NCBI RefSeq assembly: GCF_025979705.1
Contig: NZ_CP110136.1
Span: forward strand, 3,472,001-3,536,000
Length of the DNA: 64,000 nucleotides
Source of the DNA: Hymenobacter sp. YIM 151858-1
Lineage (GTDB): Bacteria > Bacteroidota > Bacteroidia > Cytophagales > Hymenobacteraceae
Reading direction: 5' to 3'
The notes under the pieces were generated by a model. It was not told the DNA's origin. It did not search any database and saw only the letters and a list, made by a program, of their open reading frames with translations. Both the position numbers and the translations under genes were made by a program. This document shows positions 5,208 through 62,010 of the stretch, in pieces (positions within the stretch are counted from its first letter, which is position 1; every line of letters starts with the position of its first letter).

Positions 5208-6503
5208 ATGAAAGCTAAAGTCAACGCAGCGCAATTAGTACTGCGCAACCCCAAAGGAGAACTATCTTCTCTGACAGTCGAGTACCGGGACCCCGAAGGA
5301 CGGTTTAAGCGCGTAGCGACAGGAGTTCAGGTAGTGAACCGGAAGAACGCCAAGGGGGAGTTCATCTATTGGGACGGTGTTACGATAAAAGCGAACGGCT
5401 CAAAAGACCCCAAGAACGACACCAAGTCTGCTCGGGAGACACTTGCCGATGTTAACCGAGTTATTGATAACCTAGAGCGTCAATTGAAGCGTTGGCCGAT
5501 GGTTAACGAGGTTACGGCGGCTATGAAGTCGGAAGCAGCCCCCGTAGCTCAGGAGGAGAAGCCTCTGGTAGATATCCTGGAAGAGTTCATTACTACGCGG
5601 ACAGGGTGGCAGCCTGCTTCACGGAAAAGCTTCACTACACTGCTGCACAACATCAAGGCATATCAAGAGGCTGAGGATATCACTTGGACGCTCTTGACGC
5701 TCACTAACAGCGAAATCAAGAAGTTTCAGCATTGGATGCTTGAAACCTACGATTACCGTAATAGCACCAGCGGAAAACGCACACGACTGCTGAGGCAGTT
5801 TTTAGCCGAGCATCCGGCCCCAGGAGTCAACTTGACCAAGGTAAAGCCCCTGCATACGCAGCTGCTCACTGCGCCCGTAGTGCTCGAACAAACAGAAATA
5901 GAGGCCTTAAGGACGCTACCTCTAGACCCTAAAAGCAGGCTCGGAAAAGTGCGTAACCTCCAAGTGTTACAGATTTTCACTGGGCTGAGGGTATCCGACC
6001 TCATGTGCTTAGACTGGCACCATATCCGCAGTAACGAAATAGAAATCCGCGAACAAAAAACCAAACGTACACGGTACATACCACTATTGGAGCCTGCACG
6101 TGAAGTACTCAAGCTCTACACGGACGCCGATGGTATGCTGCGTTTGCCTAGCATTAGTCCTCAGAAGTTTAACGACTACATAGGCGAGCTTGCTCAACAA
6201 TACCTGACGGACTCGAAGGGGAAAGCTAAGATGGTGTTTGTCACCCGTAAGCACCGGGAATCGGTTCTGGAAGAGTGGCAACCCAAACACGAGCATATCA
6301 CCAGCCACACGAGCCGCCGTAGCTTTTGTAGTCTTCTGCTCAGCTTGGGCTACTCCGTACGGGATACAATGGCATTGAGTGGGCACCGGTCCCTAGCAGC
6401 CTTCCAGCGCTACGTAGGTCTAGTCGAGTCACGAGCTGACTTAGCCCAGGATATCAACGCCCGCTATCAAGCGAGCCTCAAGCAGTCGGTAACTACTACG
6501 TAA
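5208..6503 (+). CDS. tyrosine recombinase (site-specific integrase)
   Basis: A 431-residue integrase of the type common in Bacteroidetes elements. There is an N-terminal beta-rich arm-binding region (about 1-90), a SAM-like core-binding domain (about 115-220) and the catalytic domain (about 235-420). The active-site set can be read as R261 in TGLRVSDL, a Lys in EQKTKRTRYIPL, H367 and R370 in HTSRR, H393 in SGHRS and the nucleophile Y402 in RYVGL. All are intact, so it should be active. It lies 176 nt from the left attachment core and faces into the element, and it presumably drives insertion into tRNA-Phe. Confidence 0.95.
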   Translation: MKAKVNAAQLVLRNPKGELSSLTVEYRDPEGRFKRVATGVQVVNRKNAKGEFIYWDGVTIKANGSKDPKNDTKSARETLADVNRVIDNLERQLKRWPMVNEVTAAMKSEAAPVAQEEKPLVDILEEFITTRTGWQPASRKSFTTLLHNIKAYQEAEDITWTLLTLTNSEIKKFQHWMLETYDYRNSTSGKRTRLLRQFLAEHPAPGVNLTKVKPLHTQLLTAPVVLEQTEIEALRTLPLDPKSRLGKVRNLQVLQIFTGLRVSDLMCLDWHHIRSNEIEIREQKTKRTRYIPLLEPAREVLKLYTDADGMLRLPSISPQKFNDYIGELAQQYLTDSKGKAKMVFVTRKHRESVLEEWQPKHEHITSHTSRRSFCSLLLSLGYSVRDTMALSGHRSLAAFQRYVGLVESRADLAQDINARYQASLKQSVTTT

Positions 6504-6538
6504 GCCGTAGATTGGTAATTCAACGCAATTCAACTCAC

Positions 6539-6847
6539 ATGGCCCGGCCAACCCAGCAGCAGATTACTCAACTCGACCAAGATGTATCCAGCTACCAAAG
6601 GGTTAGGTCAGCTATTATATCGAAGGTTAACCAGACGGAAAGCGACGCCCAGAACAACCGTATACCATTATGGTTGGCTGCTGAAAGCATAACTGACCTG
6701 TACCAGGAACTCCATGCTACTCCGGAGCGCCGCCAGTTCCTAACGCACGTTGCCAGAGCCAAAACAGATGCTGATTACGAAAAGTACCTGAGGGCCGCTC
6801 ACTCGAAACACTTTCTTAAAGTAAAACTCGACCCTACTAAGCTCTAG
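6539..6847 (+). CDS. small hypothetical protein of the tRNA-Phe element
   Basis: A soluble, mostly helical protein of about 102 residues that I do not recognise. No signal peptide, membrane segment or metal motif is visible. The frame is open from a TTG at 6512, but the ATG at 6539 before ARPTQQQITQL is the more natural start. It begins 35 nt after the integrase stop on the same strand and is probably cotranscribed with it, which would suit a recombination accessory factor. That role is only a positional guess. Confidence 0.55.
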   Translation: MARPTQQQITQLDQDVSSYQRVRSAIISKVNQTESDAQNNRIPLWLAAESITDLYQELHATPERRQFLTHVARAKTDADYEKYLRAAHSKHFLKVKLDPTKL

Positions 6848-7225
6848 ATATCTTGGTTTTCAACAAAAAGGCGCCATAGCAGGGGCTTTTTTTATGTGCC
6901 TGTATGGGAGAAATTATATGCCCTTTAAGCTCCTCCAAAGCGGTCTTATGTACTCTTTACATGCCCATCAAGGTTGTTTACGCGCACTTGCTAAGCTAGA
7001 TAAATGCGCATTTCAAGCCTGTGGACAGCAAATTTCAAGTTGTTAGCAATCCTAAAGGAGCATAGTAAAGCCTATAGCTGTAAAACGGGCACCCTGCTTG
7101 TGTTTTTTGTACACAGTTCTGGATTGTGGAAAGAGTTTTCGGGCTAGGCATCATTTTCATTTTTCTGGAACTCCTAACTGCGTGGACGTTTGGGCACACC
7201 CCTAACTATTTAAGGGAAAACGCCC
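6848..7225. other. non-coding block within the element
   Basis: These 378 bases have no convincing reading frame. A weak hairpin followed by a T run at about 6870-6895 may end the integrase operon. The rest is AT-richer than the flanks and probably holds the promoter for the small DNA-binding gene at 7226. No repeats comparable to those at 8571-9184 were seen. Confidence 0.5.
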
Positions 7226-7393
7226 ATGAAGTACAACGATAATCGCTTGCACGTCAGAGTTCCTGCAAGCCTGCTTACGAAAGCACACCAAACAGCGCGT
7301 GAGAGCAACGAAACCCTTTCACGCCTAGTCAGAGCTTACCTAGAATCTTATGTCGCCTCACAGCCTCTTAAAACCACCTCAGAGGCCGCATAA
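7226..7393 (+). CDS. small ribbon-helix-helix DNA-binding protein
   Basis: A 55-residue gene. The sequence reads as a CopG/Arc-like ribbon-helix-helix: a beta-strand LHVRVPASLL, helix A TKAHQTARESN, then ETLSRLVRAYLESYV as helix B. Proteins of this size usually bind DNA as dimers and often repress the replication gene beside them. It lies 49 nt upstream of the Rep gene, with a hairpin between them (arms 7402-7409 and 7423-7430), so control of rep copy number is a reasonable inference. The start is the ATG at 7226. Confidence 0.75.
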   Translation: MKYNDNRLHVRVPASLLTKAHQTARESNETLSRLVRAYLESYVASQPLKTTSEAA

Positions 7394-7442
7394 ATAACAG
7401 AAAAGCCGGAGGCCTTCTAGCCCCGGCTTTACCATTGATTAG

Positions 7443-8570
7443 TTGCAGTACCTCCTTACCCTTGACCGCTTGACCTTGCAGATGGTCAGCACCTCAGAAG
7501 CTCGCTTTGACAGTAAATACGTAGCCGAACATTACCCGTACAAAGGCAACGCTTACGTTGTAAATAACACCCTCCAACTGCGCAAGCTGGATTACGAAAC
7601 TCATTACCTGAATAAATACTCTGTGTGGATAGAGGGCCGTCACGTGGCCGATATCTCCACGGATTGCCGCCGAGCTTCGCAAGCCCAGAGCATCAAGCTC
7701 AGCTTCAAAAACAACGTCTTTTACACCCTACCCGGTTGGGCTTTTTACCTGGATATCATTGAACAGTGCTTGCCCCTAGGTTTTCAATTGGTCAGCTACG
7801 TTGAAGTAGCATTCCACTTCCAAACGGCCGAACCTTTACGCCCGCGTATGTGGCACATCTACAGCCAAAGCACCTTTGTTAAAGATGTGAAGAACCCGCT
7901 ATATGCTCCGCTACGGGGTATGCAGACCTGTAGCCTACACTACGGCGAGTCCTACACGTTCGGCAGCAAAAAGGATGGTAAGCAAATAGCGGTGTACAAC
8001 AAAACCCAAGAAATAGCGGAAAACGGCTACGAAAAGCAGTATATCCTGGACTGCCTTGCCGCAAACGGTTTCGATATGGGTGCCGACGTGGAAAAGATAG
8101 AGGCCAAGCTTGGCGGCAAATACTTCGCCCGGCAGAAAGACGAATGCCCGCCCGCCCCCTCAGACCTACACGGGGCTACTCTGTGGCACATTTTCAAAAA
8201 GGCCCTGGGGGATACCCTGACTTTCCGCAAGCTCACTGAACACACGTTCGACGCCAACCGGAATCGGAAGACCGCAACGGTCACGCTGTTTGAACTTCCC
8301 GATGAAGTTACCCAGCCCCGCCCGGCTCCCTACGCTTGGCGCGAAGAACGAGACGAGAGCGAACACCGCAACCGCATCGAAGCCAAGAACGCCGTAACCC
8401 GCTTCATTCGCCACGGGCGCCCGGAAGACCTGACCCAGCTTGACTACCTGCGCAAGCATGTCAAAGCCCCGAAAGGCACGGATTGGAAGTATCTGCTGAA
8501 CCGATACGCTCAAGACTACACGGGTGCCCCATCGGTTGACAGTAGGGCACGAATCGAAATGTTCGGGTAG
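7443..8570 (+). CDS. Rep_trans-like replication initiation protein
   Basis: A 375-residue protein resembling rolling-circle initiators of the Rep_trans/filamentous-phage type. Recognisable landmarks are a central strand VSYVEVAFHF (equivalent to the usual RiDiAfD, with Glu replacing Asp), YTFGSKKDGKQIAVYNKT with a candidate catalytic tyrosine Y185, and a following VEKIEAKL strand. These Reps nick one strand at an origin and stay attached to the 5' end. The start is uncertain: the frame opens with TTG at 7443, and the first ATG is 13 codons in. The repeat-rich non-coding block directly after the stop is the obvious candidate origin. Confidence 0.7.
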   Translation: MQYLLTLDRLTLQMVSTSEARFDSKYVAEHYPYKGNAYVVNNTLQLRKLDYETHYLNKYSVWIEGRHVADISTDCRRASQAQSIKLSFKNNVFYTLPGWAFYLDIIEQCLPLGFQLVSYVEVAFHFQTAEPLRPRMWHIYSQSTFVKDVKNPLYAPLRGMQTCSLHYGESYTFGSKKDGKQIAVYNKTQEIAENGYEKQYILDCLAANGFDMGADVEKIEAKLGGKYFARQKDECPPAPSDLHGATLWHIFKKALGDTLTFRKLTEHTFDANRNRKTATVTLFELPDEVTQPRPAPYAWREERDESEHRNRIEAKNAVTRFIRHGRPEDLTQLDYLRKHVKAPKGTDWKYLLNRYAQDYTGAPSVDSRARIEMFG

Positions 8571-9184
8571 TTCATCGTAGGGTAAACCCCAATAACAATA
8601 GGTGAATACCCTACGATGGGAGTATAGGTAGAGTACGAATACTTCCGATATCTACCCGTAGAACTCCCCAGCACCCATCGGAAAAGCCCACGGCAGCGAA
8701 CGGCCGTAGGCTTTTCTTTCTCCGTAGCAAAGCGAAGGGAGAAAGGAAACAGTAAGCGTGTGCGGTGAACGTAGCGCCCCGCAGGGATTGATTCTGGGCA
8801 CAGCAAAGCGAAGCCCGGAAGCAATAGCGTAGTGTGGAACGACTTCGGAACTCCTGAAACCCACCAAATGACTTACCCGTGTCGGTTTTCACTATCTGTC
8901 CCTCCCCAGCGGTATAGGTACTGCTCCCCAGAGTTCCACCTGAGTAAACCCTTGCCAACCCTAGCAAAGCGTATTAGAAAGTTCTGGAAAGTCACTATAT
9001 ATATTTGATAGGGGAGGGGGTATCCGCCCCCTCCTGCTCCTCCTACTGCCCCCCACAATGCTGGGATAACAGATGTATAATTTTTTCAAAAAAAATTGAT
9101 ATATAAAATCGATTTTGCAATATGTAAAAACCCCATCGCTGAAAAGCAATGGGGTTCCTGGACTTCATACTGTAGGTAATTGCC
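8571..9184. other. structured non-coding region, candidate replication or transfer origin
   Basis: About 614 bases without a gene but dense in structure. Inverted repeats: 8573-8584/8607-8618; 8681-8694/8703-8716 (one mismatch); 8712-8723/8738-8749 (imperfect); 8792-8799/8813-8820 (one mismatch); 9013-9020/9027-9034 (G-rich). The word agcaaagcgaag occurs at 8726-8737 and 8802-8813 in the loops of two hairpins, with a partial copy at 8963-8971. Direct repeats: ctccccag at 8664, 8902 and 8924; gtataggta at 8622 and 8912. The position behind a rolling-circle-type Rep suggests an origin. That function is inferred. Confidence 0.55.
9129..9156 (-). terminator. terminator of the element lipoprotein gene
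   Basis: Twelve-base arms at 9129-9140 and 9145-9156, with one mismatch and a GAAA-like loop, are followed on the minus strand by a T tract (the A run at 9126-9130). It lies 29 nt after the stop of the minus-strand lipoprotein gene. Confidence 0.75.
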
Positions 9185-51544: not shown

Positions 51545-53317
51545 TTGTCAGCTCCTCTACCTCCCACGCGCTCGGCCGGTTTGTTCCGCCGCAAAGCGCT
51601 TTCCGACCTGCTGGCCAACCCCCCGGCCGACGAAGACCTGCACGGCTCGCACCCCGGCGAGCATGGCCTGGCGCGCCACCTTACCGTGCGCGACCTCACC
51701 TCCCTAGGTATTGCCGCCGTAATCGGGGCGGGCATCTTCAGCACCATCGGCAATGCCTCGTACGACGGCGGCCCGGCGGTGTCGCTGCTGTTCGTGTTCA
51801 CGGCTATTGCCTGCGCCTTCTCGGCTTTGTGCTACGCGCAGTTTGCGGCCACTATTCCGGTGTCGGGCTCGGCCTACACCTACGCTTATGCTTCGTTTGG
51901 CGAGCTGGCCGCCTGGATTATCGGCTGGGCGCTCATCATGGAGTACGCCGTGGGCAACATCGTGGTGGCTATCAGCTGGTCCGACTACTTTACGGGGTTG
52001 CTGAGCGGCGTGGGCATCGAGCTGCCCTTGTGGCTAACGATGGGCACGCAAAGCGCCTACAAAGGCTACCACGCGGTGCTCGAGCTGATGCAAGCCGGCA
52101 AGCCGCTAACCGATGCCGCCCCCGATCAGCTGGAGGCGTACAAGGCATGGTCGGCAGCGCCCGAGCTGGTGGGCGGCCTGCGCTTCGTGGTCGATCTGCC
52201 CGCTTTTCTCATTACCGTGCTCATTACCAGCCTGGTATACGTGGGTATCAAGGAGTCGAAAAACGCCTCCAACCTGCTGGTGCTCCTGAAGCTGGCGGTG
52301 GTATTTGTGGTTATCGTAGTGGGCGTGTTCTACATCAAGCCCGCCAACTGGAGCCCCTTCGCGCCCAACGGCATCGGCGGCGTGCTCAAAGGCGTCTCGG
52401 CCGTGTTCTTCGCCTACATCGGCTTCGACGCCATCAGCACCACGGCCGAGGAGTGCAAAAACCCGCAGCGCGATTTGCCGCGGGCCATGATTTACGCGCT
52501 GGTTATCTGCACGGTGCTGTACGTGATTATCACGCTGGTACTCACGGGCATGGTGAACTACAAAGAGCTGGCCGTGGGCGACCCGCTGGCGTACGTGTTC
52601 AACAAAGTAGGCGTGGAGTGGCTTGGCGGCATTGTGGCCGTTTCGGCCATCTTCGCCATGGCCTCGGTGCTGCTGGTGTTCCAGATTGGCCAGCCCCGCA
52701 TCTGGATGACGATGTCGCGCGACGGGTTGCTGCCGCCGGTGTTTGCCCGCGTGCACCCCAAGTTCCGCACGCCTTCGTTTAGCACCATCGTAACGGGCCT
52801 GTTTGTGGGCGTGCCGGCCCTGCTGCTGAACATGGACCTGGTTATCGACCTGACCTCCATCGGTACGCTGTTCGCCTTTGCGCTGGTGTGCGGTGGCATT
52901 CTGGTTATCGACCCGCGGGGCCAAAGCAACGCGCGCTTCAAAGTGCCCTACATCAACGGCCGCTACCTGGTGCCGCTGATTTTGCTGGCCGGCGCCGCGC
53001 TGGTGATGGTGTACAACCGCGAAAACATCGACGACTTTGCGCGCAAAATCAGCTTTGCCGAGGGCTACGAAGGCTTCCGGCACCAAATTCCGATGCTCGT
53101 GTTTTTGCTGGCCAGCCTGCTGATTGCGGTGGTATCGTTCCGCAAGCAGTTGTCGTTGCTGCCGGTGCTGGGCCTGCTCACCAACCTGTACCTCATGACG
53201 CAGCTGGGCATCAGCAACTGGGTGCTGTTTGGCGGCTGGTTGGTGATTGGCCTGGCCATTTACTTCAACTACGGCATCAAGCACAGCAAGCTCAACCGCG
53301 CGGCGGCTGCTGCCTAG
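51545..53317 (+). CDS. APC-family amino-acid permease
   Basis: A 590-residue transporter with 12 to 14 membrane helices of the cationic amino-acid/YfnA type: GIAAVIGAGIFSTIGNASYDGGP (first helix with the GAGIF unwound region), PVSGSAYTYAYASFGELAAWIIG and FFAYIGFDAISTTAEE. The substrate is an amino acid, exact type unknown. The start is a TTG at 51545, with a TATCTTTTG box just upstream at 51513-51521. The TAG stop is part of a CCTAGG. Confidence 0.92.
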   Translation: MSAPLPPTRSAGLFRRKALSDLLANPPADEDLHGSHPGEHGLARHLTVRDLTSLGIAAVIGAGIFSTIGNASYDGGPAVSLLFVFTAIACAFSALCYAQFAATIPVSGSAYTYAYASFGELAAWIIGWALIMEYAVGNIVVAISWSDYFTGLLSGVGIELPLWLTMGTQSAYKGYHAVLELMQAGKPLTDAAPDQLEAYKAWSAAPELVGGLRFVVDLPAFLITVLITSLVYVGIKESKNASNLLVLLKLAVVFVVIVVGVFYIKPANWSPFAPNGIGGVLKGVSAVFFAYIGFDAISTTAEECKNPQRDLPRAMIYALVICTVLYVIITLVLTGMVNYKELAVGDPLAYVFNKVGVEWLGGIVAVSAIFAMASVLLVFQIGQPRIWMTMSRDGLLPPVFARVHPKFRTPSFSTIVTGLFVGVPALLLNMDLVIDLTSIGTLFAFALVCGGILVIDPRGQSNARFKVPYINGRYLVPLILLAGAALVMVYNRENIDDFARKISFAEGYEGFRHQIPMLVFLLASLLIAVVSFRKQLSLLPVLGLLTNLYLMTQLGISNWVLFGGWLVIGLAIYFNYGIKHSKLNRAAAAA

Positions 53318-53343
53318 GTGCCGCCGGCTCTTAGTGCCCCAAG

Positions 53344-53376
53344 CCCCGGTTGCCACCTAGGCGGCCGGGGTTTTTT
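53344..53376 (+). terminator. terminator of the permease gene
   Basis: Six-base G+C arms at 53344-53349 and 53365-53370, then six T, 26 nt after the permease stop. A CCTAGG lies in the loop. Confidence 0.75.
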
Positions 53377-53382
53377 GTGGGC

Positions 53383-53411
53383 TTGCGCGGCCGTTGGGTT
53401 GCCGTAACTTG
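53383..53411 (+). promoter_or_regulatory. promoter of the helicase-nuclease gene
   Basis: TTG at 53383-53385, 19 bases, TAACTTG at 53405-53411, about 60 nt before the helicase ATG. The spacing is right; the -7 box departs from TAnnTTTG at one base. Confidence 0.5.
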
Positions 53412-53471
53412 CAGGGTTAGCGGCCGGGCGCCGGCGCCACCTAGGGCCAGTTATTTCCTATTGATTTCCGC

Positions 53472-56400
53472 ATGAATTCTTCGTCTGGCCTGAGCCCTTT
53501 GGAGCGCGAACGGTTGCTGGCCCTGCTGAACTACACCCGGGAAAGCGTGCGGTTAAAAGCAACGCCCGCCGCCGATGTTACCCGCCAGTCAGCCTTTTGC
53601 GCCCTCGAGTCTCAGCTGAACGGCTTGCCTGGCATAGCCCTGAACGTGGCCGCCGACGACGAGGAGCTGTGGCTGCGCGTGGAGCGGCTGAAGGAAACGC
53701 CCGCGCCTGCCATTACCGATGCGGTGCTGGCCACCCTCACCGAGCTGACCAACGACCCCAGCCAGAGCCCCCGGTTGCGCCCCCAACTGCCGGCCCAAAC
53801 CCTGCTGCGCCTAGGTCTGCTGCCCGAGGGCGCGGCCGAGGAGCCCGATTACAATCCGCTGACGCCGGTGCCGCTGGCTACGCTTCCCCAAGCCGCCCAA
53901 CTAACTGCCGACCTGGCCCACTACCAACAGCAGCAGTGGCAGCCCTGGGCCCTGGAGGAAACGCGCCGGCGCCGAACGATTGGCTGGTATTCGCGGCTGT
54001 ACGCCCTTAAGCAGCAGCTCGATGGCGGCCTGGCCGATGCGCCCCTGGAGCTGGTGTGGGGGGTAGGCGTGGCTGCGTGGCAACTGCCCAATGCCGAGGT
54101 GCGCTACCCCGTGCTTACGCGCCTCGCCGAGCTGACGCTGAACCCCCATACCATGGCCCTGGAGGTGCGCCCGCGCGAGGCGACTACCCGCCTGGAAACG
54201 GACGTGTACGCCGCCCACGAGGTGCCGGGCGTGGCCGGGCTGGAGCAGGGTAGCCGCCCGCTGCTGGCCGAAGCGCCCTACCTCTCGCCCTTCGAGGCTG
54301 CTACCTACGAGCCGGTGCTGCGCCAGGCCACCGCCCTGCTCGATGCCCAGGGCCGCTACCTGCCCGACGAGCCCGCCGCGGCCGCTCGCAGCGTGCCCGC
54401 CGCCACGCCGCAGCTTCAGCTAACCGATACCTGGGTGCTGTTTGCGCGCCCCCGCAGCGCCAACGCTTTTTTGCAAGACCTGGAGGCCTTGCGCACCCGC
54501 ATCGAGGCGTTAACCGACGAATTGCCGCCCGCCGTAGCCGCGTTGGTGCGCGAGCCAGCCAGCTACCACACCAACCAGCCGTTGCCCGCTTTCCGGGGCC
54601 TCTCGCTGGTGGGCGACGCCGGCGCCGCCGCGCCGCAGGAGCTGTACTTTCCGCTGCCGTTCAACGACGAGCAGGTGCGCATTGTGCAGCTGCTGGAGCA
54701 CGCGCCCGGCGTGGTAGTGCAAGGGCCGCCCGGCACCGGCAAAACCCACACCATCGCCAACGTCATCTGCCACTACCTGGCGCTGGGCAAGCGGGTGCTC
54801 GTTACCTCCATGCGCGACCCCGCCCTGGGCGTGCTGCGCGACAAGCTGCCCGCCTCGGTGCGTCCCCTGGCCATCAGCCTGCTGACCAGCGAGCGGGAAG
54901 GCTTGCGCCAGTTTGAGCACGCCGTGCAGCACATTGCCGAGCAAGTACAGCGCCTCGACCGCGACGCGGCCCGGCGCCACATCGGCCAGCTAACCGAACA
55001 GCTCGATGGCTACCACAGCCGCCTGGCCTACATCGACCGCCGCATGGCGGAGTGGGGCCGGCAAAACCTCGAAGCCGTAGTGCTGGATGAGGAGCGCCTC
55101 CAACCCCACCAGGCCGCTCGCGAGGTGGTGGAGGCCGAAACCCTGGCCGAATGGCTGCCCGATGCGTTGACGCCTGCTCCGCTTCATCGGCCGCAGTTCG
55201 ATGAGGCAGCCGTGACCAGCCTGCGGGCTGCCCGCCTGGCGCTAGGGGCTGATCTGGACTACCGCGCTGCTTGCCTGCCCGCCGTAGCCGCCCTGCCCGA
55301 ACCCCGCGAGCTGCTGCTCACGCATCAGCAGCTCAGCCGCTCGCTGGGGCTGCAAGAAGCTGTAGCTACCGGCGAGCTACCCGCGCTGGCCCACGTGCCC
55401 GATGCGCTTACCCGCGTTACCGCCGTTTTGCAGCAGCTCAGCAACCTAGCGGCGCAGCAACTCAAGCTAGGGCAGTTGCCGTGGGCTGCCGCGCAAACCA
55501 CCCGCTTGGCTGCCGGCACCGCCAGCGGCCTGTACAGCCTGCTCGAAGCCCTAGGTGCCGAGCTGCAACAGGCCCTGGCAGCAAGGCAGCAATTCTTACC
55601 TAGGCCAGTGCGGGTACCCGCCGGGCTGGAGCTGGAGCCCGAGCTGCTGGCTGCCGTGGCTGCCCAGGCCCGCGGTGAGCGGCCTTTCGGCCTACTCGGT
55701 GTATTTGGCAAAACGGCCCAGAAGCAACGCCTGAGCGAAATCAAAGTACTGACCGGCCCGCCCGCTTCGGCCGCCGACTGGGCTTACGTAGCCAGCTACC
55801 TCGATTTGCTGCGCCGAATGCACGAGCTGGCGGCGCGTTGGCAGGCGCTGGCCCCCGAGTTGGGCCTGCCCGCCCTTACCCAGCAAGACCCCCTGGCCGC
55901 TACTACCGAAGCCCGGCAACTCTACGAAGTTTACGAGCAGGTGCGCGACGCCCAAACCGCCGAGGCGGCGCTGCGCCAGCAGATACACCAGTTGCTGCCT
56001 GCCTGGGCCCTGGCGCACCCAACAGCAGCGGTACCGGTGGCATTGCCCGAAGCCGCTGCCGTGCTGCGGCAGCACCAGCTGCGCCTGCAGCTGGAAACGG
56101 CCTGGGCCGTGCGCCAGCAGTACGAAACCGCTCTGCACAACACTTCCGGCCGCATCAGCGAAGCGTTGCGCCGCTTTTTCGAGCAGGAGCTGGGCAACCC
56201 CGCCGTTGCCGATGCCGACCTGCAAACCCGGTGGGGTGCCCTGACGCAGGAACTGCGGCGCGTACATGACTTGCAGCCGCTGCTCAACACAGTAACTGCC
56301 GTCACCGAACAAATAGCCGCATCCGGGGCCCCGCTGTGGGCTGCGCGCTTGCAAACCGAGCCCGCCCTAGGTGCCCCCGACGAGCTGCTGCCCAACGACT

Positions 56401-58061
56401 GGCGCCAACGCTGGCGGCTGCGCCGCCTGGCGACCTTCCTCGCCAACCTCGACGGCCGCGCCGAGCTACGGCAGCTAGCCACCGAGCGCCGCGAAGCCGA
56501 AAAAGGCTTGGCGCTGACGTATCAGGAGCTGATTAACCAGCGCACCTGGCTGCAGCTGGCCCAAAACGCCACCCCGCAGGTGCGCAGCGCGTTGGAGGCT
56601 TACCGCAATGCCATTACCAAAATCGGAAAAGGAACCGGTAAGAAGGCCGGGCGCTACCGGCTTGATGCCCAGCGCGCGGCAGCCCAGGCCAACGCGGCCA
56701 TTCCCTGCTGGATTATGCCGCACTACCGCGTGTCGGAGTCGCTGCCGGCTGAATTGGGGGCTTTTGACCTAGTGATTGTGGACGAAGCCTCGCAGTCGGA
56801 CCTGACGGCGCTGCCCGCGCTGTTGCGGGCCCGCAAAATCCTGGTAGTCGGCGACGACAAGCAGGTGTCGCCGGAAGGTATTGGGTTGGAAGAAGAGAAA
56901 ATCCGTGGCCTGATGGCCCGCTTTCTGACCTCGCAAGTGAGCCTGTACGCGCCGCAGCTTGCGCCCGACCGCTCCATTTACGACCTGTTTAAGGTAGTAT
57001 TTGCCGAAGCCGGCGTGATGCTGAAAGAGCATTTCCGCTGCGTGGGCCCCATTATCGAGTACTCCAAGCGCGAGTTCTACAATCATGAAATCAGGCCATT
57101 GCGCTTGCCCAGTGCCTCCGAGCGGCTCGACCCACCGCTAATTGATGTGCTGGTAGAAGACGGCGTACGCCGCCAGGATACTAACCCCGCGGAAGCGCGC
57201 TTTATCGTCGATGAAATCAAGCGCCTGTTGGCCGACCCTGCCATGGCCGGGCGTACCCTAGGTGTGGTATCGTTGCTGGCCGACAAGCAGGCCCGGCTGA
57301 TCTGGGATATGCTGGAACAGGAAATCGGCCTCGAAGCCATGCTGCGCCACGAGCTGGCCTGCGGCGATGCGCGCACGTTTCAGGGCAAGGAGCGCGACGT
57401 GATATTCCTTTCATTGGTGGTGTCGAAGGGGCAGGCCACGGCTGTGGGGCGCGACGACTTTGCCAAGCGCTTCAACGTGGCCGCCTCCCGCGCCCGCGAC
57501 CGGATGTATCTGGTGCGCAGCCTCGAAGCCGACGAGCTCAGCCCCAACGACCGCCTGCGCCGCGGCCTGCTGGCGCATTTCGCCACGCCCTACGGTCAGG
57601 ATGAAGCCCGGGTAAGCAACCTGCGCGATTTGTGCGAGTCGGCGTTTGAGCAGGACGTGTACGACGTGCTCACCGAGCGCGGCTACCGCGTGCAGCCCCA
57701 GGTACGCGTAGGGCAATACCGCATCGATCTGGTGGTGGAAGGTGCCGGCGACCAGCGCCTGGCCGTGGAGTGCGACGGCGACCAGTACCACGGCCCCGAC
57801 CGCTGGGCCGACGACCTGCGCCGGCAGCGCGTGTTGGAGCGGGCGGGCTGGCAGTTCTGGCGCTGCTTTGCCTCGGCCTGGGTGCGTTGGCGCGCCGAGA
57901 GCGTGCAGGATTTGCTCCGTACGCTTACGCGCCTGGGCATCGAGCCCCTAGGTGCCCAAGCGGCCGCGCCCAGCAGGCACGTTGAGGCGCGCCGCTACGT
58001 GGCCTTTCCGGAGGTGGCCGAGCCGGTAGCGGCAGCGCTGCCCATGGAGGCGGAGTTGTAG
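53472..58061 (+). CDS. large SF1 helicase with C-terminal PD-(D/E)XK (MTES_1575/Vsr-like) nuclease
   Basis: A 1529-residue protein. Residues 1-400 are not recognised. The SF1 motor follows: Walker A GPPGTGKT (about 418-425), a long coiled-coil-prone insertion (about 470-1080), Walker B VIVDEASQSD (about 1100), GDDKQVSPEG (about 1127), FRCVGPIIEYSKREFYN, TFQGKERDVIFL and NVAASRARDRMYLV. Residues about 1385-1500 form a nuclease of the Vsr/DUF559 type: an acidic helix ESAFEQDVYDVL, RIDLVV and AVECDGDQYH, with Asp and E-C-D active-site residues intact. Similar helicase-nucleases occur in defence islands and DNA repair. It is probably cotranscribed with the RAYT-like gene 33 nt downstream. Confidence 0.88.
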   Translation: MNSSSGLSPLERERLLALLNYTRESVRLKATPAADVTRQSAFCALESQLNGLPGIALNVAADDEELWLRVERLKETPAPAITDAVLATLTELTNDPSQSPRLRPQLPAQTLLRLGLLPEGAAEEPDYNPLTPVPLATLPQAAQLTADLAHYQQQQWQPWALEETRRRRTIGWYSRLYALKQQLDGGLADAPLELVWGVGVAAWQLPNAEVRYPVLTRLAELTLNPHTMALEVRPREATTRLETDVYAAHEVPGVAGLEQGSRPLLAEAPYLSPFEAATYEPVLRQATALLDAQGRYLPDEPAAAARSVPAATPQLQLTDTWVLFARPRSANAFLQDLEALRTRIEALTDELPPAVAALVREPASYHTNQPLPAFRGLSLVGDAGAAAPQELYFPLPFNDEQVRIVQLLEHAPGVVVQGPPGTGKTHTIANVICHYLALGKRVLVTSMRDPALGVLRDKLPASVRPLAISLLTSEREGLRQFEHAVQHIAEQVQRLDRDAARRHIGQLTEQLDGYHSRLAYIDRRMAEWGRQNLEAVVLDEERLQPHQAAREVVEAETLAEWLPDALTPAPLHRPQFDEAAVTSLRAARLALGADLDYRAACLPAVAALPEPRELLLTHQQLSRSLGLQEAVATGELPALAHVPDALTRVTAVLQQLSNLAAQQLKLGQLPWAAAQTTRLAAGTASGLYSLLEALGAELQQALAARQQFLPRPVRVPAGLELEPELLAAVAAQARGERPFGLLGVFGKTAQKQRLSEIKVLTGPPASAADWAYVASYLDLLRRMHELAARWQALAPELGLPALTQQDPLAATTEARQLYEVYEQVRDAQTAEAALRQQIHQLLPAWALAHPTAAVPVALPEAAAVLRQHQLRLQLETAWAVRQQYETALHNTSGRISEALRRFFEQELGNPAVADADLQTRWGALTQELRRVHDLQPLLNTVTAVTEQIAASGAPLWAARLQTEPALGAPDELLPNDWRQRWRLRRLATFLANLDGRAELRQLATERREAEKGLALTYQELINQRTWLQLAQNATPQVRSALEAYRNAITKIGKGTGKKAGRYRLDAQRAAAQANAAIPCWIMPHYRVSESLPAELGAFDLVIVDEASQSDLTALPALLRARKILVVGDDKQVSPEGIGLEEEKIRGLMARFLTSQVSLYAPQLAPDRSIYDLFKVVFAEAGVMLKEHFRCVGPIIEYSKREFYNHEIRPLRLPSASERLDPPLIDVLVEDGVRRQDTNPAEARFIVDEIKRLLADPAMAGRTLGVVSLLADKQARLIWDMLEQEIGLEAMLRHELACGDARTFQGKERDVIFLSLVVSKGQATAVGRDDFAKRFNVAASRARDRMYLVRSLEADELSPNDRLRRGLLAHFATPYGQDEARVSNLRDLCESAFEQDVYDVLTERGYRVQPQVRVGQYRIDLVVEGAGDQRLAVECDGDQYHGPDRWADDLRRQRVLERAGWQFWRCFASAWVRWRAESVQDLLRTLTRLGIEPLGAQAAAPSRHVEARRYVAFPEVAEPVAAALPMEAEL

Positions 58062-58094
58062 TGAATCAGCAAACGCGTTGAACCCGTTCGGTTT

Positions 58095-58703
58095 ATGGAT
58101 GCTTCCGGCGAAACCTTATTGCTGACTTTGCGCCTGGCGGGCTCCGTGCCGGCCCGTGCCGGCCGCGAGCTGCAGCAGCAGCGCGTAGCGGCGCAGGAGG
58201 CAGCCCGCGCTGCCGCTACCCCCGACGAAGCTCAAGCCGCCCACCGCCGCGCCGAAAAGCAGTTCTTCGTGGCCTTCGATGCCCTGCTCGATGCGGGCCC
58301 TACGGGCGCGGCTTACCTAGGCAAAGAGAAAATAGCCGAAGCCGTGGCCGGCGAGCTGCTGATGCTGGAGGAATTGGGCCTGCGCGTATCCTGCTTTGTG
58401 CTGATGCCCAATCACTTGCATGCCGTGGTGCACCAGCCCGCGGGCCACGCCCTCTCGCTCTACAAAGCCGTGGAGCTGCTGCATCAGCGCACCGCCCAGC
58501 AGGCCCGCCGCATTCTGCGCGGCCAACTGCCCGCGCAAGCCGATTTCTGGCATCCTGGCTTTCACGAGCTACCGGTGCTCGATGCGGCCGAGCAGCAGCG
58601 CGTGCAGGCCTACCTGCTGGCCCACGCCCGGCGCCTGAAGCTACCCGCACGCTACGGGGAGTGGCCGTATGCTTACGTGGCTCCGGTGGCCCGCCCGACC
58701 TAG
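58095..58703 (+). CDS. RAYT-like HUH/Y1 transposase-family protein
   Basis: A 202-residue protein of the Y1 transposase family, closest in layout to REP-associated tyrosine transposases: first strand TLLLTLRLAGSVP, the metal-binding motif MPNHLHAVV with H107 and H109, FWHPGFHE, and the catalytic tyrosine Y173 in QAYLLAHARRLKL, aligned with the tyrosine of E. coli TnpA-REP. All catalytic residues are present. No transposon ends flank it, as is typical for single-copy domesticated RAYTs. It starts 33 nt after the helicase-nuclease stop, pointing to a joint transcript. The TAG stop lies in a CCTAGG. Confidence 0.75.
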   Translation: MDASGETLLLTLRLAGSVPARAGRELQQQRVAAQEAARAAATPDEAQAAHRRAEKQFFVAFDALLDAGPTGAAYLGKEKIAEAVAGELLMLEELGLRVSCFVLMPNHLHAVVHQPAGHALSLYKAVELLHQRTAQQARRILRGQLPAQADFWHPGFHELPVLDAAEQQRVQAYLLAHARRLKLPARYGEWPYAYVAPVARPT

Positions 58704-58712
58704 GGCAAGCGG

Positions 58713-59246
58713 CTAACTGCCGGGCTCAAGTGCCGGAGCCGGGTTCAGAAACAGCACCATGGTTTCCTCGTCGAAGTACTGGCCCTGCCATTTCATGGCG
58801 CGCGGCTCAATGCCCGTGCTCACGAAGCCTTCGGAGGCGTAAAGGGCGCGGGCCGGGGCGTTGGTGGCCACCAGCGTCAGGAGTACTTGCTCGAGGCCCG
58901 GCAGCTGGCGGGCGAAGTGCAGGGCCGTACGCAGCAATGCCCGACCCAGGCCGCGGCGGCCCGCCTCGGGGCGCACGTACATGCCCCTGATCAGTCCTTT
59001 GTGGCGCATTTTGTCGAGTGGTTCGCGTACAAAGCCCACCGTGCCTACCAGCGCGTCGTCGGCAAAAGCGCCCCAGATTACTTCTTCGGCATTGGGGTGG
59101 TACGCAGCCCAGCGCTGCGGGCGGCGGGCATCGTCGGCGGGCGTTACCCGGAAGCACTCGGGCTGGCGCGTCAGGCCTTCGGCGCGCAGGGCGAGGTAGG
59201 CCGGCTCATCGGCCGGAAACACAAGCGGACGAATGGTATCAGCCAT
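58713..59246 (-). CDS. GNAT family N-acetyltransferase
   Basis: A 177-residue acetyltransferase. The acetyl-CoA-binding region is IRGMYVRPEAGRRGLGRALL, with the R-x-x-G-x-G/A turn, followed by VLLTLVATNAPARALYASEGF. The N-terminal substrate part (LVFPADEPAYLALRAEGLTRQPECFR) is of the general type seen in amine or antibiotic acetyltransferases. The substrate is unknown. It converges with the RAYT-like gene, leaving 9 nt between the stops. Confidence 0.88.
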   Translation of the reverse strand: MADTIRPLVFPADEPAYLALRAEGLTRQPECFRVTPADDARRPQRWAAYHPNAEEVIWGAFADDALVGTVGFVREPLDKMRHKGLIRGMYVRPEAGRRGLGRALLRTALHFARQLPGLEQVLLTLVATNAPARALYASEGFVSTGIEPRAMKWQGQYFDEETMVLFLNPAPALEPGS

Positions 59247-59292: not shown

Positions 59293-60258
59293 CTACTTAG
59301 CGCGGTTGATGACGAACACGCTCAGCAGAATAATGCCCATACCCAGCAAGTGCCACCCGTTGATGATTTCGCCATCGAGCAGGCCCCAGCCCAGGGCCAT
59401 AATGGGCACCAAGTAGGTGTTGGAGGAGGCAAACAGCGCCGTGGATTGCTGAATGAGCTTGTTGAACAGCACCATGGCCACGGCCGTGCTGAGGGTGGCC
59501 AGCAGGGCAATGTAGCCGAAGGCCGTCCAGGCGCCGGGCACGTGTTGCAGCTTGTGCAGGAAATTGGTACCGAGGAGCAGGTAAGCCGCGGCCGGCCCGC
59601 CAATCAGCATGAGCAGCAGCCCGGTTACGGCCAACGACGGAATGCCGTGGAAATGGTGCTTGATAACGTTGATGCTGACGCCGTAACCCAAGGTAGCCAG
59701 CACAATGTAGAGCCCGTACCAGGCGTTGCCCTCGCCGGTGGGGGTGGCGTCGCCGCCGCTGCCGCCCAGGCCCATCAGCACAATGGTGCCCAGCAGCCCC
59801 GCGCCAATGCCGGCCGCACGCAGCCACGTAATGCGCTGCCCGAAGAACATAGCCCCCATGAGCAGCGTGAACACCACCGTTAGGGCGTTGAGTACGCCGG
59901 CCAGGCCCGAGGCCAGCTTGGTTTCGGCGTAGGCAAACAGAAAAGCCGGAATGAGCGTGCCCACCACACCGCTCAGCAGCAGCCACTTAAATCGGCTGCG
60001 CTCTACTTTGCGCACGTAGCGCAGCGCAAATGGCAGCAGCAACAGCGCGGCCACCGTAACGCGGGTGGCACCCAGCTCCAGCGCCGAAAACACCGCCAGC
60101 CCTTTCTTCATCAGGATAAACGATGTACCCCAAATGGAGGCCAGCACCACCAGCAGCACCCATGCCGACAGAGGCGTATGGTGCGGCGGCGGACCGGCAA
60201 CAACGGGTGGGGCAGGAGCGGCGGCAGCAGCAGGGGCGGGGGCAGGAGCAGAGGACAT
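59293..60258 (-). CDS. EamA-family DMT transporter
   Basis: A 321-residue transporter with ten membrane helices in two EamA halves. The first half opens with WVLLVVLASIWGTSFILMKKGL and carries ALELGATRVTVAALLLLPFAL; the second ends with PIMALGWGLLDGEIINGWHLLG. It probably exports metabolites or amino acids. The N-terminal 30 residues are Pro/Ala-rich and cytoplasmic. The ATG at 60258 is preferred over the open frame reaching 60378. It lies 46 nt from the GNAT gene, on the same strand. Confidence 0.88.
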   Translation of the reverse strand: MSSAPAPAPAAAAAPAPPVVAGPPPHHTPLSAWVLLVVLASIWGTSFILMKKGLAVFSALELGATRVTVAALLLLPFALRYVRKVERSRFKWLLLSGVVGTLIPAFLFAYAETKLASGLAGVLNALTVVFTLLMGAMFFGQRITWLRAAGIGAGLLGTIVLMGLGGSGGDATPTGEGNAWYGLYIVLATLGYGVSINVIKHHFHGIPSLAVTGLLLMLIGGPAAAYLLLGTNFLHKLQHVPGAWTAFGYIALLATLSTAVAMVLFNKLIQQSTALFASSNTYLVPIMALGWGLLDGEIINGWHLLGMGIILLSVFVINRAK

Positions 60259-60484
60259 GGCCGGCAAAGGTCGGAACAAGCCGCGAGGTATGCCATGGTT
60301 GAGGTGAAGACCCCTAGGTGCCGGTGCACGAAGAACTGACAGACAGCGCCTTTTACTGGGTTCGGGCCTGATCTTCACCCGATGATGTGATTGACACCTA
60401 GGCCGGTTACGGGTAGTATTGCCGCCAGATCAATATCTCTTGGCCCCTTGGGCTAGCCCCATTCTCACCCCCTTGCCATCTGCT

Positions 60485-61020: not shown

Positions 61021-62010
61021 TTAATCGGCCAGTACGGCTTCGCTTTGCGCAATTGTGGCCAAAATGGCGCGCACCTCGTCGGGGGTGTTGGCCTCAACCA
61101 GCTGCGTGCGCCACTGCTTGGCACCTACCAAGCCTTTGAAGTAATGCGCGTAGTGGCGGCGCATCTCGAAGATGCCCACTTTCGCGCCCTTCCACTCAAT
61201 GCTCTTCTCGAAGTGCATCTGGCAGGCACCCACGCGCTCCTCCAGGGTGGGCGGGGCCAGCTTTTCGCCGGTAGCTAAGTAATGCTTGATTTCGCGGAAG
61301 ATCCAGGGGTAACCGATGGAGGCGCGGCCAATCATAATGCCGTCGACGCCGTAGCGGTTTTTGTACTCCAGGGCTTTCTCGGGCGAGTCGATGTCGCCGT
61401 TGCCGAAAATGGGAATGCGAATGCGCGGGTTCTCCTTGATCTTGGCAATCAGGGTCCAGTCAGCCTCGCCCTTGTACATCTGCACGCGGGTGCGGCCGTG
61501 AATGGTTAGCGCCTCAATGCCAATGTCCTGCAGGCGCTCGGCTACTTCCTCCACGTTCCGGGTCGAGTCGTCCCAACCCAGGCGCGTCTTCACCGTCACG
61601 GGCAGGTGCGTGGCTTTTACCACGGCCTCGGTCATCTGCACCATCTTCGGAATATCGCGCAACAGGGCTGCGCCGGCACCGCGGCAGGCCACCTGCTTCA
61701 CGGGGCAGCCGTAGTTGATGTCGATGAGGTCGGGCCCGGCTACGGTGCTGATTTTGGCGCACTCGGCCATGGTTTGCACATCGGAGCCGAACAGCTGAAT
61801 GCCAATGGGGCGCTCGTAGTCGAACACGTCGAGCTTTTTCTTGCTCTTGGCCGCGTCGCGAATCAGGCCTTCCGACGACACGAACTCGGTGTACATCAGA
61901 TCGGCGCCGCCTTGCTTGCACACGGCACGAAACGGCGGGTCCGACACGTCCTCCATCGGGGCAAGCAGCAGCGGAAAATCGGGCAAGGCGAGGTCGCGGA
62001 TGTAGACCAT
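61021..62010 (-). CDS. dusB: tRNA-dihydrouridine synthase
   Basis: A 329-residue FMN enzyme that reduces uridines in the tRNA D loop. The flavin-barrel motifs are APMEDVSDPPFRAVC, GCPVKQVACRGAGAALLRD (catalytic Cys region), TIHGRTRVQMYKG and IFGNGDIDSPEKAL. The DusB subfamily is assigned from overall layout and length. The minus strand carries TAAATTTG at 62074-62081, a likely -7 box 64 nt before the ATG. The gene is divergent from the CPBP protease. Confidence 0.93.
   Translation of the reverse strand: MVYIRDLALPDFPLLLAPMEDVSDPPFRAVCKQGGADLMYTEFVSSEGLIRDAAKSKKKLDVFDYERPIGIQLFGSDVQTMAECAKISTVAGPDLIDINYGCPVKQVACRGAGAALLRDIPKMVQMTEAVVKATHLPVTVKTRLGWDDSTRNVEEVAERLQDIGIEALTIHGRTRVQMYKGEADWTLIAKIKENPRIRIPIFGNGDIDSPEKALEYKNRYGVDGIMIGRASIGYPWIFREIKHYLATGEKLAPPTLEERVGACQMHFEKSIEWKGAKVGIFEMRRHYAHYFKGLVGAKQWRTQLVEANTPDEVRAILATIAQSEAVLAD

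What the first reader, a model, noticed from the sequence alone, without database searches (positions are those of the whole stretch)
53472..58703. Helicase-nuclease and RAYT-like HUH protein in one transcription unit
A 1529-residue SF1 helicase with an intact Vsr-like nuclease is followed after 33 nt by a small HUH endonuclease-type protein with complete catalytic residues. One protein unwinds and cuts, the other can nick and hold single-stranded DNA. A promoter-like sequence stands before the helicase and none is evident between the genes. Helicase-nuclease fusions are frequent in defence loci, but this pairing with a RAYT is not one I recognise. It is the best candidate here for an undescribed DNA-processing or anti-invader system.
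Basis: partly seen in the sequence, partly recalled or inferred. Interest (0 to 1): 0.66.

Follow-up and report, generated by a model that had tools for sequence, protein, structure and literature searches.

The report
Defence helicase-nuclease beside unrelated RAYT
The two genes are real and both look functional, but the large DNA-unwinding and DNA-cutting protein is a probable virus-defence gene sitting in a chromosomal slot where close relatives carry a different defence gene, while the small DNA-nicking protein appears to be simply its neighbour and not its partner.

Summary
Motifs are intact and both genes are under purifying selection.

The pairing is positional. In this family (Solirubrum/Hymenobacter, by inference) both genes lie at one fixed junction between an amino-acid permease and an EamA transporter. 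Over 110 junctions a RAYT is no commoner with a helicase (31 of 55) than without (35 of 55). Outside this family 0 of 72 loci with the helicase have a RAYT nearby.

The slot upstream of the RAYT carries this helicase ("A", 10 of 110), a roughly 30%-identical DUF4011/DUF3320 helicase-nuclease ("B", 45 of 110) that NCBIfam calls anti-phage ProA, or neither; never both. A and B replace each other between sister species, usually with the breakpoint just before the RAYT. Plasmid relatives of A often sit directly behind BREX brxL or a restriction gene.

Best reading: a stand-alone helicase-nuclease defence gene, outside the Hhe/ProA definition, in an allele-swap slot; the RAYT is an independent neighbour. 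New variant of a known kind. A CCTAGG iterated palindrome was noticed in passing.

The parts
51545..53317 (+). amino-acid permease, left border of the slot
   Evidence: Pfam AA_permease_2 6.8e-56; borders the slot in relatives
53318..58094 (.). exchange slot between permease stop and RAYT start; holds helicase A here, helicase B or other content in relatives
53472..58061 (+). helicase A: SF1 helicase with C-terminal Vsr-like nuclease, 1529 aa
53472..54656 (+). N-terminal part of helicase A (residues 1-395), no Pfam match over most of it, modelled at pLDDT 84, no clear solved fold found (inconclusive)
54723..54746 (+). Walker A motif GPPGTGKT (residues 418-425)
   Evidence: invariant in 10 type-A sequences
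56781..56792 (+). helicase motif II DEAS (residues 1104-1107)
57645..57926 (+). MTES_1575 / Vsr-like nuclease domain (residues 1392-1485)
   Evidence: Pfam 9.9e-33
58062..58094 (+). 33-nt gap; no promoter-like or terminator-like site found; length and sequence vary among relatives
58095..58703 (+). RAYT-type HUH protein, 202 aa; goes with the downstream flank rather than with the exchanged helicase
58413..58421 (+). HUH motif H107-L-H109
58611..58613 (+). catalytic Tyr173
   Evidence: 77 of 77 homologues
58713..59246 (-). GNAT acetyltransferase
   Evidence: Pfam Acetyltransf_1 4.3e-17
59293..60378 (-). EamA-type transporter (name from recall, not scanned), right border of the junction
   Evidence: conserved position in relatives
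61021..62010 (-). tRNA-dihydrouridine synthase-like gene (name from recall, not scanned), conserved flank used in the flank tree

Best explanation
The 1529-aa protein is a stand-alone anti-invader helicase-nuclease. Inferred mechanism: the N-terminal domain and the long insert recognise foreign DNA or a replication or repair intermediate on it, the SF1 motor translocates and unwinds, and the Vsr-like nuclease cuts. It sits in a chromosomal exchange slot (permease - slot - [RAYT] - EamA). There it and a diverged DUF4011/DUF3320 helicase-nuclease (ProA/PDC-S37 type) replace each other one gene at a time, presumably by homologous recombination in the shared flanks. The RAYT is a separate gene with its catalytic residues kept, which goes with the downstream flank; it is kept or lost independently of the helicase and is probably an ordinary REPIN-type single-strand nickase. 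Shown: gene content, motif conservation, swap pattern, breakpoints, lack of association, plasmid neighbours. Inferred: anti-phage activity, the biochemical steps, and the recombination route.
For: Slot census of 110 genomes: A 10, B 45, never both. On the flank-gene tree the A label needs 8 changes for 10 rows, at least 6 on well-supported branches. Nucleotide homology between A/B sister genomes runs to the permease end and resumes downstream, with at most 40-50 nt near Walker A alignable inside the helicase. In the 4 A/B comparisons with two near-full-length RAYTs (G007 used twice; the G006 copy has an internal stop) it resumes at, or within about 60 nt of, the RAYT start. B passes NCBIfam anti-phage ProA (1563.5 and 1517.2 against cut-off 1500) and matches PADLOC PDC-S37 end to end (2030 and 1966 bits). 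Relatives of A: 79 genome loci kept from 101 found, over several phyla, and 491 plasmid records, 22 with at least 80% coverage. 6 of the 8 annotated plasmid copies read stand directly after BREX brxL or after a restriction gene. RAYT independence: Fisher p 0.56, independent pairs median p 1 (low power), RAYT tree no better than the flank tree at grouping A and B (6 against 5 changes), 0 of 72 loci outside the family, no plasmid match.
Against: No defence gene neighbours the helicase at this junction in the window, and no neighbour family of 40 chromosomal relatives recurs in more than 3 of 128 proteins, the listed ones being mostly of housekeeping type. So chromosomal A genes are not in classical defence islands, and a repair role is possible. 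The A label is somewhat clustered on the flank tree (19 of 500 shuffles as low) and on the 77-row RAYT tree (0 of 500). In the pair G039/G086 the RAYT region is not alignable either (G086 has only a RAYT fragment), so breakpoints do not always spare the RAYT. In the three closest species the gap is short and similar (36-42 nt between hit ends), so local co-transcription is possible. The six plasmid copies beside restriction or BREX genes come from two plasmid groups; two carry the identical protein and one is interrupted by an IS element. The slot also takes ordinary genes such as a peptidase. No phage test exists.
Confidence: 0.68

Rival explanations
1. Helicase and RAYT form one two-gene DNA-processing or anti-invader system: the helicase unwinds and cuts, the HUH protein nicks and holds the single strand.
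For: On the same strand in 37 of 37 stretches of this family with both, 22 with a gap of at most 100 nt between hit ends; both under purifying selection; the pairing occurs with both helicase types A and B.
Against: RAYT with helicase 31 of 55, without 35 of 55; a negative tendency in clade 2 (1 of 6 against 25 of 34, p 0.014, uncorrected for descent); independent pairs show no link (low power); 0 of 72 helicase-A loci elsewhere have a RAYT; the permease is about equally adjacent; RAYT tree no better than flank tree for helicase type; a RAYT fragment beside a full-length helicase in G086.
Confidence: 0.06
2. The helicase-nuclease is a DNA repair or genome-maintenance enzyme; the A/B exchange is neutral drift between analogous repair genes.
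For: Chromosomal relatives often sit among housekeeping-type genes without a recurrent partner; dN/dS about 0.13 shows steady use; solved relatives of the motor are SMUBP-2 and UPF1/NAM7.
Against: Patchy occurrence (10 of 204 genomes of the family), relatives across phyla and on plasmids, exchange with an NCBIfam anti-phage protein, placement behind BREX and restriction genes on plasmids.
Confidence: 0.2
3. RAYT and its REPIN-like hairpins promote exchange at the slot: nicking at the half-element just upstream of the RAYT starts recombination, so the RAYT helps swap helicases.
For: In A/B sister pairs homology resumes near the RAYT start; CTCTGCG half-elements lie within 60 nt upstream of the RAYT in 6 stretches by a strict pattern, with degenerate forms by eye in others; RAYT-positive genomes hold more copies (mean 5.4 against 2.3, p 1.2e-4, not corrected for descent).
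Against: A swap also separates G093 and G094, neither of which has a RAYT at the junction; the window's gap lacks the element; no link of RAYT with helicase presence.
Confidence: 0.05

Closest known systems
ProA (NCBIfam NF058533) / PADLOC candidate PDC-S37
   Same: Large single protein, SF1 helicase core plus MTES_1575 Vsr-like nuclease; occupies the very same chromosomal slot in sister species
   Different: The window protein lacks DUF4011 and DUF3320 by Pfam, scores 241.7 against a cut-off of 1500, and its N-terminus shows no profile similarity to that of B. Some plasmid relatives of A are annotated as DUF3320 proteins of about 1937 aa, so the border between the two groups is not sharp
Hhe (NCBIfam NF042953, PADLOC PDLC02194)
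   Same: Helicase plus Vsr-like nuclease in one chain, annotated anti-phage
   Different: Partial match only, 166.5 of 2000 bits, best stretch residues 1019-1494; no DUF4011
REP-associated tyrosine transposases (RAYT/TnpA-REP), structure 4ER8
   Same: HUH and Tyr residues; best solved fold is 4ER8 (Foldseek probability 1.00, profile E 4.6e-8)
   Different: Below NCBIfam and Pfam cut-offs; Tyr+4 metal-ligand position is His here; no flanking hairpin found in the window
Core defence hotspots of Pseudomonas aeruginosa (PMC10250203, abstract and passages seen)
   Same: Defence genes exchanged between fixed core genes
   Different: Here mainly a single gene with two alternative alleles rather than islands of 1-224 kb with many systems

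Membership tests
ProA / PDC-S37 / Hhe helicase-nucleases | N-terminal DUF4011 domain | tested here: not met
   No Pfam DUF4011 in the window protein at E up to 1 while slot-mate B has it at 1.6e-42; hhalign of N-termini probability 0.05%
ProA / PDC-S37 / Hhe helicase-nucleases | SF1 helicase core with AAA_11/AAA_12 and intact motifs | tested here: met
ProA / PDC-S37 / Hhe helicase-nucleases | MTES_1575 Vsr-like nuclease after the helicase | tested here: met
   9.9e-33, residues 1392-1485
ProA / PDC-S37 / Hhe helicase-nucleases | C-terminal DUF3320 | tested here: not met
   absent in the window protein, present in B; some plasmid relatives of A are annotated with it
ProA / PDC-S37 / Hhe helicase-nucleases | score above the curated family cut-off | tested here: not met
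   ProA 241.7 of 1500, Hhe 166.5 of 2000 bits
RAYT (REP-associated tyrosine transposase) | HUH motif and catalytic Tyr | tested here: met
   HxH 76 of 77, Tyr 77 of 77
RAYT (REP-associated tyrosine transposase) | HUH fold like TnpA-REP | tested here: met
   model pLDDT 89.7, best hit 4er8 probability 1.00 with modest TM-scores 0.46/0.55; profile E 4.6e-8
RAYT (REP-associated tyrosine transposase) | score above curated cut-off of NF047646 | tested here: not met
   44.5 of 80 bits
RAYT (REP-associated tyrosine transposase) | REP/REPIN repeats beside the gene and dispersed in the genome | tested here: inconclusive
   CTCTGCG elements just upstream of the gene in some relatives and 5 strict matches elsewhere in the window genome, none beside the window gene
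conserved two-gene defence system (helicase plus RAYT) | genes co-occur more than expected and travel together | tested here: not met
anti-phage defence gene | protects against phage when tested | not testable with these tools
   only neighbourhood, distribution and family evidence

The most novel reading that the evidence does not exclude
The permease-EamA junction of Solirubrum/Hymenobacter is an allelic immunity slot. Two helicase-nucleases that share only about 30% identity and differ in accessory domains are exchanged one gene at a time between sister species, and type A is an undescribed helicase-nuclease family that also serves as an add-on behind BREX and restriction operons on plasmids.
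Probability: 0.5. Interest if true: 0.62.

Novelty: new variant of a known kind. Interest (0 to 1): 0.45.

Why it matters
It corrects a tempting guilt-by-association call: two tightly adjacent nucleic-acid enzymes that do not behave as a system. It also supplies a natural experiment. One chromosomal slot carries two alternative helicase-nucleases, swapped between closely related backgrounds, so which phages each allele stops, and what the DUF4011/DUF3320 domains add, can be tested by allele exchange. If type A is protective, its position behind BREX and restriction genes on plasmids would make it a recurrent add-on module of those systems.

Tried and rejected
Considered and rejected: the helicase-RAYT pair as one system. 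Also rejected: membership in Hhe/ProA as now defined, with the reservation that some plasmid relatives of A are annotated with DUF3320. Divergence of the A N-terminus from DUF4011 is unsupported by profiles. The fold of the A N-terminus: Foldseek gave no match at E 0.001 and the second look at most Z 5.1, which is inconclusive. A fixed partner gene for helicase A elsewhere: no family in more than 3 of 128 neighbours from 40 loci (25 of 90 and 25 of 96 families were shown); a UvrD-like protein recurs in 13 loci of the full set, apparently a syntenic Psychrobacter neighbour. Promoter scans gave nothing useful. Phage records hold only partial helicase matches (4 records).

Side question on CCTAGG: C5 methyltransferases (PF00145) were found in 4 of 12 CCTAGG-rich and 5 of 13 CCTAGG-poor genomes, and N6/N4 methyltransferases (PF01555) in 5 of 12 and 10 of 13, so neither family tracks it. 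Other methyltransferase families were not tried.

Corrections made on rechecking: searches counted 111 junctions because genome G084 was fetched in two stretches; one search counts each genome once (110). Counting the stop-bearing RAYT copies as absent gives 28 of 55 against 32 of 55, p 0.57.

Rows dropped before counts: junction counts use the 110 genomes in which both flanks fell in one fetched stretch; 6 of these are from other genera of the family. The other 30 of 141 stretches are second stretches of a genome, contig ends or copies outside the junction. One of the 110 (G031) is not in the flank tree, hence 109 there. In the RAYT alignment five of 82 rows (three duplicate stretches, two paralogues) were left out of the 77. 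Family genomes with no permease hit at the strict limit were not sampled for empty slots, nor were all those with one. The independent-pairs test rests on 8 and 19 pairs, of which only about 2-3 are informative, too few to reach 0.05. The genome-contig scan kept the best 80 of 101 matches. The chromosomal neighbour scan took 40 of the 72 loci outside the family, and 128 of the 148 neighbour proteins listed. Plasmid neighbourhoods were read for 9 of the 22 high-coverage records, one of them without annotation. The 20 hairpin stretches were picked mostly because they showed close pairs.

Literature: PMC10250203, PMC6006769, PMC4390886, PMC1939737, PMC9122589 and PMC9455709 were seen as passages (with abstract starts in the listings); all others as search listings with abstract starts. 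No paper was found for PDC-S37 or for Hymenobacter with CCTAGG. I do not claim that type A is unpublished beyond searches.
Full report
What is there. The window lies at 3472001-3536000 of contig C1 of a 4.62-Mb genome. ORF 53472-58061 encodes 1529 residues and ORF 58095-58703 encodes 202, on the same strand and 33 nt apart. The first matches Pfam AAA_11, AAA_12 and, at its C-terminus, the MTES_1575 Vsr-like nuclease (9.9e-33). Its helicase and nuclease motifs are invariant in ten aligned full-length sequences. The second is a RAYT-like HUH protein: NCBIfam REP_Tyr_transpos 1.4e-11 but under the cut-off, profile match to solved RAYT 4ER8 at 4.6e-8, confident model (pLDDT 89.7) with 4ER8 as best fold. 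HxH is kept in 76 of 77 and Tyr173 in 77 of 77 relatives; the Tyr+4 metal-ligand position is His rather than Asn in the window. Both genes are under purifying selection (helicase dN/dS 0.130-0.135, RAYT 0.105-0.182 in three pairs).

A fixed junction. A RAYT relative (E up to 1e-30) is present in 81 of 204 genomes of the family, and a type-A helicase in 10 of 204, the window's own included, the others at 65-90% identity. Fetching surroundings showed one syntenic junction: amino-acid permease - slot - RAYT - variable stretch - EamA transporter, followed in many by the dihydrouridine-synthase gene. The slot holds helicase A, a second helicase B, other genes or nothing. B has DUF4011, the same helicase and nuclease domains and DUF3320, passes the NCBIfam model of anti-phage protein ProA (1563.5 and 1517.2 against 1500 bits in the two examined) and matches PADLOC PDC-S37 with 2030 and 1966 bits. 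A and B align over 453 columns at 31% plus the Walker A stretch. The N-terminus of A shows no profile similarity to that of B.

Is the pairing more than position? In 110 genomes both flanks were seen in one stretch. A near-full-length RAYT accompanies a helicase in 31 of 55 and stands without one in 35 of 55 (Fisher p 0.56). Restricted to the two genera that carry the genes: 31 of 55 against 35 of 49 (p 0.15); within clade 1, 30 of 49 against 10 of 15 (p 0.77); within clade 2, 1 of 6 against 25 of 34 (p 0.014, in the negative direction, uncorrected for descent). With stop-bearing RAYT copies counted as absent: 28 of 55 against 32 of 55 (p 0.57). On a tree of flanking genes, phylogenetically independent pairs show no link (median p 1 in both directions), but only about two or three pairs are informative, so this test has little power. 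The helicase is about as tightly tied to the permease: same strand in 58 of 58 and within 300 nt in 51, against 37 of 37 and 32 for the RAYT. The gap to the RAYT runs from 11 to 360 nt in 34 of 37 stretches and contains another gene in three. Outside the junction, four helicase-B copies (L138, L139, L146, L148) have no RAYT, and three RAYT copies (L102, L207, L208; the last two distant paralogues) have no helicase in the stretches read.

The swap. Type A is scattered on the flank tree: 8 changes for 10 rows, at least 6 on well-supported branches; 19 of 500 shuffles were as low, so there is some clustering. Sister or near-sister genomes differ by allele: G093 (A) and G094 (B), G007 (A) and G002/G003/G006 (B), G055 (A) and G048 (B), G039 (A) and G086 (B). 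Nucleotide alignment shows upstream flanks 86-97% identical ending at the permease end, at most about 40-50 nt alignable inside the helicase, near Walker A, and homology again downstream at about 79-97%. Where both genomes keep a near-full-length RAYT (four comparisons, G007 used twice; the G006 copy has an internal stop), homology resumes at or within about 60 nt of the RAYT start, so the exchanged unit is the helicase alone. In G039/G086, where one RAYT is a fragment, the RAYT region is not alignable, which is a result against a strict rule. For the 35 genomes with both genes and a flank sequence, the A/B label needs 6 changes on the RAYT tree (62 of 500 shuffles as low for A) and 5 on the flank tree, so the RAYT follows helicase type no better than the flanks do. 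On the 77-row RAYT tree A against all others needs 5 changes, fewer than in any of 500 shuffles, so close relatives do cluster there. G093/G094 have no RAYT at the junction, so swapping does not need it.

Helicase A elsewhere. A scan of GTDB contigs with the type-A alignment found 101 relatives and kept 79 loci: 7 in Solirubrum/Hymenobacter and 72 in Proteobacteria, Chlorobi, other Bacteroidota, phytoplasmas and others, at 36-63% identity in the best segment. A RAYT profile found a RAYT in 6 of the 7 and in 0 of the 72; 65 of the 72 have at least 700 nt and 61 at least 3 kb of downstream sequence. In 40 of these loci (128 neighbour proteins) no family recurs in more than three, and those shown are mostly of housekeeping type. 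On plasmids 491 records have a match, 22 covering at least 80%, whereas the RAYT has no plasmid match. Of nine plasmid copies read, three (Acinetobacter; two with the identical protein) stand 63 nt behind brxL of a BREX cluster. Three (two Sphingobium, one Rhizorhabdus interrupted by an IS element) stand 123-127 nt behind a type III or BPTD_3080 restriction gene, with a methylase gene visible in two. One lies beside a GIY-YIG nuclease, one has no clear defence neighbour, one is unannotated. The Sphingobium copies are annotated as DUF3320 proteins of about 1937 aa, longer than the window's, so the A group is not free of that domain everywhere. Phage records hold only partial matches (4 records).

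Mechanism. Best reading, 0.68: helicase A is a stand-alone defence helicase-nuclease. Recognition by the N-terminal domain or the insert, SF1 translocation and Vsr-like cleavage are inferred from domains, not shown. The RAYT is a neighbour with its own life. In some relatives a half-element of CTCTGCG repeats lies immediately upstream of it (six stretches by a strict pattern; degenerate forms by eye). Elsewhere in those genomes the repeats form long hairpins. RAYT-bearing genomes hold more copies (mean 5.4 in 81 against 2.3 in 47, p 1.2e-4, not corrected for descent). According to passages of PMC6006769, RAYT genes are predominantly vertically transmitted and the mainly Bacteroidetes subclass 2.6 is flanked by atypical secondary structures. 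Rivals: a repair enzyme (0.2), a true helicase-RAYT pair (0.06), a RAYT that drives slot exchange (0.05).

Membership. The protein works like Hhe/ProA but is not filed there: DUF4011 and DUF3320 were tested and not met, and the curated cut-offs are missed widely. The RAYT meets the HUH-Tyr and fold criteria but not the model cut-off, and the repeat criterion is inconclusive at the window itself.

Verdict. What replaces it, a one-gene allele-swap slot with two helicase-nucleases, is a new variant of a known kind and of moderate interest (0.45).

Noticed in passing
window 1-64000 (88 sites); whole genome G000: CCTAGG is massively iterated: 5325 copies in this genome, 5678 and 6212 in its two nearest relatives and 5585-8806 in six further genomes, 1209-2331 in four, and at most 888 in the other 191 of 204 family genomes. 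The nine richest fall in four separate places of the flank tree (read by eye). The core is the hexamer with lineage-specific flanks; in the window it lies in coding and intergenic DNA. It resembles cyanobacterial HIP1 (PMC4390886, passages and abstract start); neither PF00145 nor PF01555 methyltransferases track it.
   Followed up: partly
L212-L231 and upstream of RAYT in relatives (e.g. L075, L077, L088): REPIN-like dispersed elements: inverted pairs of CTCTGCG blocks forming near-perfect hairpins, mostly about 80-120 nt in the stretches fetched, with half-elements just 5' of the RAYT gene in some genomes; up to 36 strict pattern matches per genome, 5 in the window's genome.
   Followed up: partly
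L230 (G019) and L235/L236 (G000:C1:3344196-3344656): Arms of the same repeat flank a short gene for a PDDEXK_3 nuclease (Pfam 4.2e-40 and 4.5e-41), as if the repeat pair carried it.
   Followed up: partly
L091, L092, L095, L097, L100, L101, L169; also between helicase B and RAYT in L079, L094, L099: Other occupants near the slot are ordinary genes: a peptidase M3 gene, in some with a TonB-receptor-like gene opposite (the latter name from reading the sequence), so the slot is not only for defence genes.
   Followed up: partly
L102 (G030:C3): In one CCTAGG-rich genome the RAYT homologue (60% identity) lies on a different contig from the permease and without the usual flanks, suggesting that it can live elsewhere.
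   Followed up: no
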